Program-made: the position numbers and the translations under genes
Source: Candidatus Omnitrophota bacterium
Lineage (GTDB): Bacteria; Omnitrophota; Gorgyraeia; JABMRG01
DNA: 37,129 bases
NCBI GenBank assembly: GCA_013202525.1
Contig: JABMQS010000067.1
Coordinates: 1 to 37,129 of the forward strand
Reading direction: 5' to 3'
Part shown: piece after piece, positions 7,539 to 9,046 of the stretch
How positions within the stretch are numbered: the stretch's first letter is position 1
Layout: every line of letters starts with the position of its first letter
The notes under the pieces: model-generated
What the model saw: the letters and a program-made list of their open reading frames with translations, nothing else
What the model was told of the DNA's origin: nothing
The model's database searches: none

Positions 7539-8183
7539 TTACCCCTCTATCTTTTGCGGGTGGAGTGCCTTTGAATTATCCTTGGCCCCTCTTATGATCT
7601 TCATCTTATCCAATTCGCCAAGTTCCTTAAGGCGTTTATATATCATTATCCAGCCGCAGTCCCTCTCCCTGTCGACTTCGCACTTCTCATTCTTGGAACC
7701 GCCGCACGGGCCGTTTAAAAGCCCTTTGGAACAGACGGTAAGGGGGCATATGCCGGCCGTGGCATCTATCACGCATTCACCACAGAGAACGCATTTCTGG
7801 ATAAAATGTCCGCCGCGTTGGACCATCCCTAAAAACAGTGCATCCAATGCGGGATAGACCTTCTTTCCCCTGGTGCCTTCCATTATAGACTGCGCACCAT
7901 CGCCGCAGACCATGGCAAGTATGCCATCTGATTCTGAAAGCGCATCTTTATTCTTCTGATAGAACTGCTTTGCCTTGACAGTATGGCATGGGGGATCCAG
8001 TATGGCCTTGCCTGTAATAACCTTGCCCTCTTTCTTCAGGGCCTTCTCCATCTGGTTGACCTCATCCTCTCCTCCGGTCTTGCATACCGTAGCGCACTGG
8101 GCACAACCTACCAAAAAAATCTTTTTGGCGCCTTTTAGAAATCCAAGTATCTCCTTGAGGCCCTTCTGCTTGGATATTATCAT
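7539..8183 (-). CDS. metV: Methylenetetrahydrofolate reductase Zn/Fe-S associated subunit (MetV-like)
   Basis: Cysteine-rich CAQCATVCKTGG, CVLCGECVIDATAGICPLTVCSKGLLNGPCGGS; directly upstream of metF. Confidence 0.85.
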   Translation of the reverse strand: MIISKQKGLKEILGFLKGAKKIFLVGCAQCATVCKTGGEDEVNQMEKALKKEGKVITGKAILDPPCHTVKAKQFYQKNKDALSESDGILAMVCGDGAQSIMEGTRGKKVYPALDALFLGMVQRGGHFIQKCVLCGECVIDATAGICPLTVCSKGLLNGPCGGSKNEKCEVDRERDCGWIMIYKRLKELGELDKMKIIRGAKDNSKALHPQKIEG

Positions 8184-9046
8184 CCTATACCTCTCCCTAA
8201 TTTAAAACAGTTCAGGCAATTGCGCATAAGCATTGCTGTTGTGAGTGGGCCTACCCCGCCAGGCACCGGTGTTATATATGAGGCCTTCTGGCTGGCCGAT
8301 TCAAACTCCACATCACCGACTATAGAATCCCCCACCTTACTTATACCCACATCTATAACGACCGCACCCTCTCTTATCCACTCGCCCTTTACAAGATTGG
8401 GTTCTCCGGCAGCAACGACAAGTACCTCGGCCTTGTTTACGTATGCCTTCAGCTTGTTGGCCTCGCTTGTCGCGATATGGCATACCGAAACAGTGGCCAT
8501 CTCATTCACCAGCAATATGGATAGGGGTTTTCCGACTATATTGCTGTGGCTGATTACAACGGCCTCCTTGCCATACAGCTCTATATCACTCAACTTTATA
8601 AGCTCCATTACTGCCGCCGCGGTGGGCGGGACGATCCTGTAATCCTTAAAAAAGATCCTTCCCGTATTCTCAACATGCAGGCCCTCTGCATCCTTAAATG
8701 GAGATATGGCCGAATATATCTTCTGGACATCAAAATCCTTTGGTATCGGTCGCATGACTATTACGCTACTTACGCTATCCTGCAGATTCAGGTCGCCAAT
8801 AGTAAAGATAAGCGTATTTTCGCTCCTGGTCCTTTCAATATCTACGAGCTCATACTCTATGCCTATCTCTTCCGCGGTCTTTTTCTGGGAGTTTATATAT
8901 GACGATGATGCGGGGTCCTCGGTTGTCCGCAGAACAGCCAATTTAGGAGCCTTGTTAAAGGTCTTTTTCAGAGAACCTATCTCATCTGCTAAAGCCTGCT
9001 TTATCTCTTGTGCCCTTTTCCTACCATCCAATATCTGTGCCGGCAT
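8180..9046 (-). CDS. folD: Methylenetetrahydrofolate dehydrogenase (FolD family); cyclohydrolase residues substituted
   Basis: DPASSSYINSQKKTAEEIG, SHSNIVGKPLSILL and YITPVPGGVGPLTTAMLM align ungapped over the N-terminal half with E. coli FolD (recalled), but K54 is Q, Q98 is M and D121 is E. Confidence 0.92.
   Translation of the reverse strand: MPAQILDGRKRAQEIKQALADEIGSLKKTFNKAPKLAVLRTTEDPASSSYINSQKKTAEEIGIEYELVDIERTRSENTLIFTIGDLNLQDSVSSVIVMRPIPKDFDVQKIYSAISPFKDAEGLHVENTGRIFFKDYRIVPPTAAAVMELIKLSDIELYGKEAVVISHSNIVGKPLSILLVNEMATVSVCHIATSEANKLKAYVNKAEVLVVAAGEPNLVKGEWIREGAVVIDVGISKVGDSIVGDVEFESASQKASYITPVPGGVGPLTTAMLMRNCLNCFKLGRGIG

What the first reader, a model, noticed from the sequence alone, without database searches (positions are those of the whole stretch)
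8180..9046. FolD has lost all three cyclohydrolase catalytic residues (K54Q, Q98M, D121E) and sits next to a dedicated cyclohydrolase (fchA)
The first 123 residues line up without gaps with E. coli FolD as I recall it. NPASQIYVASKRKACEEVG corresponds to DPASSSYINSQKKTAEEIG, so the catalytic Lys54 is Gln (codon CAG at 8885-8887). ILVQLPLP corresponds to VIVMRPIP (Q98 to M) and KDVDGF to KDAEGL (D121 to E); Tyr50 is kept. In the human bifunctional enzyme, substitution of the equivalent Lys56 by Gln is reported to abolish cyclohydrolase while leaving dehydrogenase activity. The adjacent fchA would supply the missing step. This suggests natural subfunctionalisation of a bifunctional enzyme inside a Wood-Ljungdahl methyl branch, and that annotating this gene as bifunctional would be wrong.
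Basis: partly seen in the sequence, partly recalled or inferred. Interest (0 to 1): 0.82.

Follow-up and report, generated by a model that had tools for sequence, protein, structure and literature searches.

The report
One-job folate enzyme with cyclohydrolase partner
In this uncultured Omnitrophota bacterium, as in every member of its phylum whose gene was read, the usually two-job folate enzyme FolD has lost the lysine needed for its second job and in nearly all cases sits beside a separate gene (fchA) that can do that job, a division of labour that public databases still label as 'bifunctional'.

Summary
The window's FolD (8180-9046, -) aligns to E. coli FolD without a gap through residue 193. 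It has Q54, M98 and E121, keeps Y50, is the only folD found in its genome, and lies between fchA and metV.

The main inference is well supported: a dehydrogenase without cyclohydrolase, with FchA filling the gap. None of 128 distinct Omnitrophota FolDs keeps K54 (123 Q, 4 L, 1 I); all have E121. Outside the phylum, none of 80 FolDs beside fchA keeps both K54 and Q98; the substitutions differ by lineage. A prediction written before reading held: 0/10 intact beside fchA, 10/10 intact in genomes without the FchA family. E. coli K54N has no detectable cyclohydrolase but keeps 19% dehydrogenase (PMC5688156).

Corrections: Q98M is lineage-specific and D121E conservative; neither residue is cyclohydrolase-specific. 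The trait is phylum-wide. The genome shows no acetyl-CoA synthase, so 'Wood-Ljungdahl' covers only the methyl branch.

New: the Omnitrophota-type subfamily has lost the NADP 2'-phosphate motif (likely NAD-linked). In 11 FolD pairs the K54-keeping copy has lost all or part of that motif, suggesting dehydrogenase-only plus cyclohydrolase-only FolDs. No activity was measured.

The parts
8180..9046 (-). folD: FolD-family methylene-THF dehydrogenase, predicted cyclohydrolase-deficient (288 aa)
8885..8887 (-). codon 54 CAG = Gln in place of catalytic Lys54
   Evidence: 0/128 Omnitrophota FolDs have K here
8753..8755 (-). codon 98 = Met in place of Gln98 (lineage-specific)
   Evidence: Q kept in 87/128 Omnitrophota
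8684..8686 (-). codon 121 = Glu in place of Asp121 (phylum-wide)
   Evidence: E in 128/128
8897..8899 (-). codon 50 = Tyr50, conserved substrate-binding residue
8543..8551 (-). residues 166-168 S-H-S in place of the common G-R-S (NADP 2'-phosphate arginine lost)
   Evidence: motif role from PMC3368264
8468..8482 (-). residues 189-193 C-H-I-A-T in place of C-H-S-R/K-T (NADP 2'-phosphate serine lost)
   Evidence: motif role from PMC3368264
9048..9659 (-). fchA: methenyl-THF cyclohydrolase (PF04961); the 203-aa form starts at ATG 9659, the ORF can be extended to 9683 with a TTG start
   Evidence: all 13 residues checked of those invariant in a 14-member alignment are kept
9694..11301 (-). fhs: formate-THF ligase (535 aa)
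   Evidence: (NF010030 above cut-off)
7539..8183 (-). metV: methylene-THF reductase partner subunit (PF12225)
6667..7533 (-). metF: methylene-THF reductase (PF02219)
2383..3201 (-). AcsE-type methyl-THF:corrinoid/iron-sulfur protein methyltransferase
   Evidence: NF005719 above cut-off

Best explanation
The FolD is a monofunctional 5,10-methylene-THF dehydrogenase: it interconverts methylene- and methenyl-THF but hydrolyses methenyl-THF poorly or not at all, because Lys54 is Gln. The adjacent, co-directional FchA carries out the methenyl-THF/10-formyl-THF interconversion, and Fhs makes 10-formyl-THF from formate, so the fhs-fchA-folD-metV-metF cluster forms a complete formate to methyl-THF route split over single-activity enzymes. 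This state was present in the ancestor of the sampled Omnitrophota and belongs to a FolD subfamily (Q54 + E121) that has also lost the usual Arg/Ser pair for the NADP 2'-phosphate, so it probably prefers NAD(H). Shown here: the residues, gene order, phylum-wide conservation, parallel losses of K54 or Q98 in other lineages beside fchA, and an alternative cyclohydrolase source (FchA family or a K54-keeping FolD) in every sampled Chloroflexota and Bacillota_A genome with a defective FolD. Inferred: loss of activity, cofactor preference, and reaction direction.
For: Residues and operon. Single folD. Omnitrophota: 0/128 distinct FolDs with K54, 128/128 E121; 233/243 genomes with FolD and 231/243 with FchA. 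Chloroflexota: 33/33 fchA-adjacent FolDs defective, and none of 44 intact FolDs adjacent; Bacillota_A 31/31 defective when adjacent; mixed phyla 16/16. Blind test: 0/10 versus 10/10 intact, prediction logged first. The three genomes with a defective FolD and no FchA-family gene were then searched for a second, K54-keeping FolD and all have one. K54-keeping genomes with an FchA-family gene mostly have it in histidine degradation: 13 of 16 tested loci are fused to or beside formiminotransferase, or beside an imidazolonepropionase-like amidohydrolase. Experiment on the E. coli enzyme: K54N no detectable cyclohydrolase and ~19% dehydrogenase; Q98H ~1% and 8% (PMC5688156). Monofunctional enzymes are known in C. 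formicoaceticum and A. woodii (PMC9124964).
Against: No activity was measured on any Omnitrophota FolD. One lineage (K54 kept, Q98E) departs by another residue, so K54 is not the only route and its cyclohydrolase deficiency is less certain. On the tree the intact/defective state changes only about 7 times (at least 5 forced by supported branches), so the Fisher values overstate independence, and the independent-pairs test was uninformative. One incomplete Omnitrophota genome (G092, 72%) and one with folD at a contig edge (G184) show no FchA. Apart from the blind test, sequences were not a random draw. Methenyl-THF also hydrolyses spontaneously (PMC5688156), so some flux may need neither enzyme.
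Confidence: 0.9

Rival explanations
1. The FolD keeps useful cyclohydrolase activity through other residues or altered geometry, and fchA is present for extra capacity or for another reaction such as formimino-THF deamination.
For: Lys54's precise role is debated in MTHFD2 modelling (PMC9173628); spontaneous hydrolysis occurs.
Against: E. coli K54N shows no detectable cyclohydrolase (PMC5688156). FolDs beside fchA outside the phylum never keep both K54 and Q98 (0/80; 0/10 more), while FolDs of genomes without the FchA family do. The window fchA is not fused to a formiminotransferase and sits next to fhs; it is the only PF04961 gene found in the genome.
Confidence: 0.06
2. The FolD is a degenerate pseudoenzyme on its way to loss.
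For: Three active-site changes, one of them lineage-specific (Q98M).
Against: Single copy, intact ORF, tightly packed operon; Y50 in 127/128 and P100 and K118 in all 109 scored Omnitrophota FolDs; the NAD(P)-binding domain scores well; phylum-wide retention.
Confidence: 0.03
3. The association of defective FolD with fchA only reflects shared ancestry of a few operons, with no functional coupling.
For: State changes are few on the tree (7; at least 5 forced) and the independent-pairs test found no usable contrasts.
Against: Different lineages changed by different substitutions (Q, I/L, A/V at 54; E at 98). Genomes lacking the FchA family but holding a K54-less FolD all had a second K54-keeping FolD, including three checked after the rule was stated. 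Two tandem pairs lie inside the canonical clade.
Confidence: 0.1

Closest known systems
Bifunctional FolD / MTHFD (E. coli FolD, human MTHFD1 DC301)
   Same: Same two Pfam domains, 40% identity to E. coli FolD, gapless N-terminal domain, Tyr50 kept
   Different: Lys54, Gln98 and Asp121 replaced; NADP 2'-phosphate Arg/Ser pattern lost; scores below every NCBIfam FolD cut-off shown
Monofunctional methylene-THF dehydrogenase plus separate cyclohydrolase of acetogens (Acetobacterium woodii, Clostridium formicoaceticum)
   Same: Works like it: dehydrogenase and cyclohydrolase on separate proteins in a formate to methyl-THF route (PMC9124964)
   Different: fchA-adjacent Clostridia read here carry V/A/I/L54 or K54+E98, not Q54+E121; which class the biochemically studied A. 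woodii and C. formicoaceticum enzymes fall in was not established here
Yeast MTD1, NAD-dependent monofunctional dehydrogenase (PDB 1edz)
   Same: Dehydrogenase-only, NAD-linked member of the FolD fold (cited in PMC11064299)
   Different: Far more distant in sequence (E 2e-16 versus 2e-63 for the best bacterial FolD); not linked to fchA
FchA (PDB 7vg4) and T. maritima cyclodeaminase-family protein (PDB 1o5h)
   Same: Window FchA is a PF04961 member matching both structures by sequence
   Different: Below the NCBIfam FchA equivalog cut-off (124 versus 275 bits); in several methylotroph genomes here FchA occurs without any FolD

Membership tests
FolD superfamily (PF00763 + PF02882) | Both domains above gathering cut-off | tested here: met
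   95.2 and 197.2 bits
Bifunctional dehydrogenase/cyclohydrolase FolD | YxxxK catalytic lysine (K54) | tested here: not met
   Q at 54
Bifunctional dehydrogenase/cyclohydrolase FolD | NCBIfam equivalog cut-off | tested here: not met
   best 285 bits versus cut-off 355
Bifunctional dehydrogenase/cyclohydrolase FolD | Measured cyclohydrolase activity | not testable with these tools
   needs enzyme assay
Monofunctional methylene-THF dehydrogenase | FolD domains, cyclohydrolase lysine absent, substrate Tyr kept | tested here: met
Monofunctional methylene-THF dehydrogenase | Separate cyclohydrolase encoded in the genome | tested here: met
Monofunctional methylene-THF dehydrogenase | Dehydrogenase present and cyclohydrolase absent in assay | not testable with these tools
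   needs enzyme assay
NAD-dependent rather than NADP-dependent dehydrogenase | Loss of Arg173/Ser197-type 2'-phosphate contacts | tested here: met
   the preference itself was not measured
FchA methenyl-THF cyclohydrolase | PF04961 domain, not fused to formiminotransferase, invariant residues kept | tested here: met
FchA methenyl-THF cyclohydrolase | NCBIfam NF045657 equivalog cut-off | tested here: not met
   123.6 versus 275 bits
Wood-Ljungdahl pathway | Methyl-branch genes fhs, fchA, folD, metF/metV, methyltransferase | tested here: met
Wood-Ljungdahl pathway | Acetyl-CoA synthase (PF03598) in the genome | tested here: not met
   absent in G000, G062, G142; own genome 93.4% complete

The most novel reading that the evidence does not exclude
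FolD has been split repeatedly in bacteria by two routes: by pairing with FchA, or by having two FolD copies with reciprocal losses, in which one copy lacks the cyclohydrolase lysine and the partner keeps K54/Q98/D121 but has lost the NADP-binding motif. The second copies would be a new enzyme type: a cyclohydrolase-only FolD.
Probability: 0.6. Interest if true: 0.72.

Novelty: new variant of a known kind. Interest (0 to 1): 0.6.

Why it matters
Separate dehydrogenase and cyclohydrolase enzymes are known from acetogen biochemistry, but no source found here states a sequence rule for predicting them. K54 together with Q98 gives such a rule, and it passed a blind test. It implies that many FolD entries in acetogens, Chloroflexota and a whole uncultured phylum are annotated with an activity they probably lack, and with a cofactor (NADP) that the Q54/E121 subfamily probably does not use. 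That changes redox bookkeeping in metabolic models of one-carbon pathways. The paired FolDs with opposite losses offer a natural test of subfunctionalisation of a bifunctional active site.

Tried and rejected
Searching by locus as centre failed until a genome handle existed. Reading Q98 and D121 as further cyclohydrolase-specific losses was dropped after the literature and the phylum survey. Reading K55/K56 as a replacement lysine was dropped. The idea that any PF04961 gene predicts a defective FolD was refined: histidine-degradation copies coexist with intact FolD. The treekit independent-pairs test gave no usable contrast (median p 1), because fchA adjacency varies mostly inside already defective clades. 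A paper on E. coli FolD active-site mutants (Sah and Varshney 2015) is cited in the library but not held, so PMC5688156 is used instead. Structure prediction was not run, since no coordinates would be returned to judge side-chain geometry. The class of the characterised A. woodii enzyme could not be settled; the two protein searches named Sporomusa relatives but no A. woodii.

Full report
OBSERVATION. The ORF at 8180-9046 (-) encodes a 288-residue FolD-family protein that is 40% identical to E. coli FolD, with no gap through residue 193. Tyr50 is kept; Lys54 is Gln (CAG, 8887-8885), Gln98 is Met and Asp121 is Glu. The fchA stop lies 1 nt before the folD ATG, and the metV start overlaps the folD stop by 4 nt. 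Gene order is fhs, fchA, folD, metV, metF, all on the minus strand. The genome has one FolD and one PF04961 gene. The phylum is Candidatus Omnitrophota, from names of close FchA relatives.

PHYLUM SURVEY. In 243 genomes of the phylum, 233 have FolD and 231 have PF04961. Among 128 distinct FolD sequences read, position 54 is Q in 123, L in 4, I in 1 and never K; position 121 is E in all; position 98 is still Q in 87 and M in 2. fchA lies beside folD on the same strand in 114 of the 128; in most of the other 14 it is in the same locus but further away or the locus is cut by a contig or fetch limit. K54Q and D121E are therefore ancestral in the sampled phylum, and Q98M is recent.

OTHER PHYLA. 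A pattern search for FchA gave 80 named loci. Surveys of 201 Chloroflexota genomes and 150 Bacillota_A genomes followed. FolDs beside fchA lacked K54 or Q98 in 33/33, 31/31 and 16/16 distinct sequences (Chloroflexota, Bacillota_A, mixed set). The substitutions differ: I or L at 54 in Chloroflexota; A or V at 54 with F, M or L at 98 in Clostridium- and Sporomusa-type FolDs; K54 kept with Q98E in Desulfosporosinus/Desulfotomaculum types. Every genome without PF04961 held a K54-keeping FolD. Fetching was guided by similarity rank and coordinates, so these are not random samples. A prediction was therefore logged before reading 20 further Chloroflexota FolDs. Result: 0/10 intact beside fchA, 10/10 intact where the family is absent.

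GENOME RULE. In the Chloroflexota and Bacillota_A genomes read, each genome with a defective FolD has PF04961 or a K54-keeping FolD. Three apparent exceptions were searched for a second FolD and all have one. Where intact FolD coexists with PF04961, 13 of 16 tested loci place that gene in histidine degradation, either fused to or beside formiminotransferase, or beside an imidazolonepropionase-like amidohydrolase. Within Omnitrophota, G092 (72% complete) and G184 (folD at a contig edge) have no FchA found.

PHYLOGENY. A quick ML tree of 167 sequences, with columns 50, 54, 98 and 121 left out, needs 7 changes between intact and defective, at least 5 forced by well-supported branches. The Q54/E121 class forms one supported group holding the Omnitrophota plus an Aerophobetes, a few Bacillota_A copies and one Chloroflexota copy. 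The Chloroflexota I/L54 group, the E98 group and the A/V54 group are separate. Fisher p-values therefore overstate independence, and the independent-pairs test had no power. The direction (loss) is inferred from conservation of these residues between the human and Leishmania enzymes (PMC3368264) and E. coli.

MECHANISM. E. coli FolD K54N has no detectable cyclohydrolase and about 19% dehydrogenase; Q98H has about 1% and 8% (PMC5688156). In the human-type enzyme, Lys56 and Gln100 set up hydride transfer and Lys56 may transfer a proton in the cyclohydrolase step; Asp125 binds the pterin (PMC3368264; PMC6443876). So Gln54 predicts loss of the cyclohydrolase step with dehydrogenase partly kept. 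Glu121 keeps a carboxylate. Met98 may further lower activity.

COFACTOR. The NADP 2'-phosphate is bound by an Arg/His/Ser combination in the human enzyme (PMC3368264). In other canonical FolDs read here, 92 of 99 keep both the Arg (GRS) and Ser/Thr (CH[ST]) positions. In the Q54/E121 class these are mostly His and Ile (GHS, CHI[AG]T); the window has SHS and CHIAT. An NAD preference is likely but unmeasured. The I/L54, A/V54 and E98 classes mostly keep the NADP motif.

RECIPROCAL LOSS. In 11 genomes with a K54-less and a K54-keeping FolD, the K54-keeping copy has lost both motif positions in 9 and one in 2, against 2 of 99 other canonical FolDs having lost both. The K54-less partners keep GRS or the GHS motif of the Omnitrophota type. 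This fits a division into a dehydrogenase-only and a cyclohydrolase-only FolD. Several of these genomes are related, so independent origins are fewer than 11.

PATHWAY. fhs, fchA, folD, metV, metF and an AcsE-type methyltransferase (2383-3201) are present, but acetyl-CoA synthase (PF03598) is absent from this genome and its two sampled family members, and occurs in 90 of 243 Omnitrophota. At least 141 genomes thus have FchA without it. The pairing is a feature of one-carbon metabolism at large, not of complete acetogenesis. Published Omnitrophota work describes partial and complete Wood-Ljungdahl versions (PMC10066038); a search of its text found no mention of FchA.

NOVELTY. Monofunctional dehydrogenases are known from A. 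woodii and C. formicoaceticum (PMC9124964). A recent family survey describes FolD as encoding a bifunctional protein (PMC11064299). No paper found here describes the Q54/E121 subfamily, the K54/Q98 rule, or FolD pairs with opposite losses. The library is open-access only, so this is not proof of absence.

Noticed in passing
L418 (2557-3444 and 1608-2465, -), also L331, L333, L422, L426, L430, L432, L436, L496-L498: FolD pairs in which the K54-keeping copy has lost all or part of the NADP 2'-phosphate motif: candidate cyclohydrolase-only FolDs.
   Followed up: partly
L171, L202, L227, L413-L415, L417 and related loci: Desulfosporosinus/Desulfotomaculum-type FolDs beside fchA keep K54 but have Q98E, folD lies upstream of fchA instead of downstream, and 'GRGET' replaces 'GRSNI'.
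   Followed up: partly
L063, L099, L100, L488 (family f8 of the phylum): Omnitrophota FolDs with Leu or Ile at 54 and mostly F or Y at 98, the most altered active sites in the phylum.
   Followed up: no
G037, G044, G110 and other f9 genomes: The f9 family shows two PF04961 match pieces per genome; not examined whether this is a split match or two genes.
   Followed up: no
window 332-3201 (-): AcsE-type methyltransferase followed by a phosphotransacetylase-like AAA_26/DRTGG protein and an ApbE flavinyltransferase, in a genome without detected acetyl-CoA synthase.
   Followed up: partly
window 26720-34784 (-): BatA/BatD-like cluster with VWA-domain proteins, TPR proteins and a DUF58 protein.
   Followed up: no
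P0188-P0307: Sporomusa and related FolDs close to the A54/F98 fchA-adjacent query are publicly named 'bifunctional protein FolD'.
   Followed up: no
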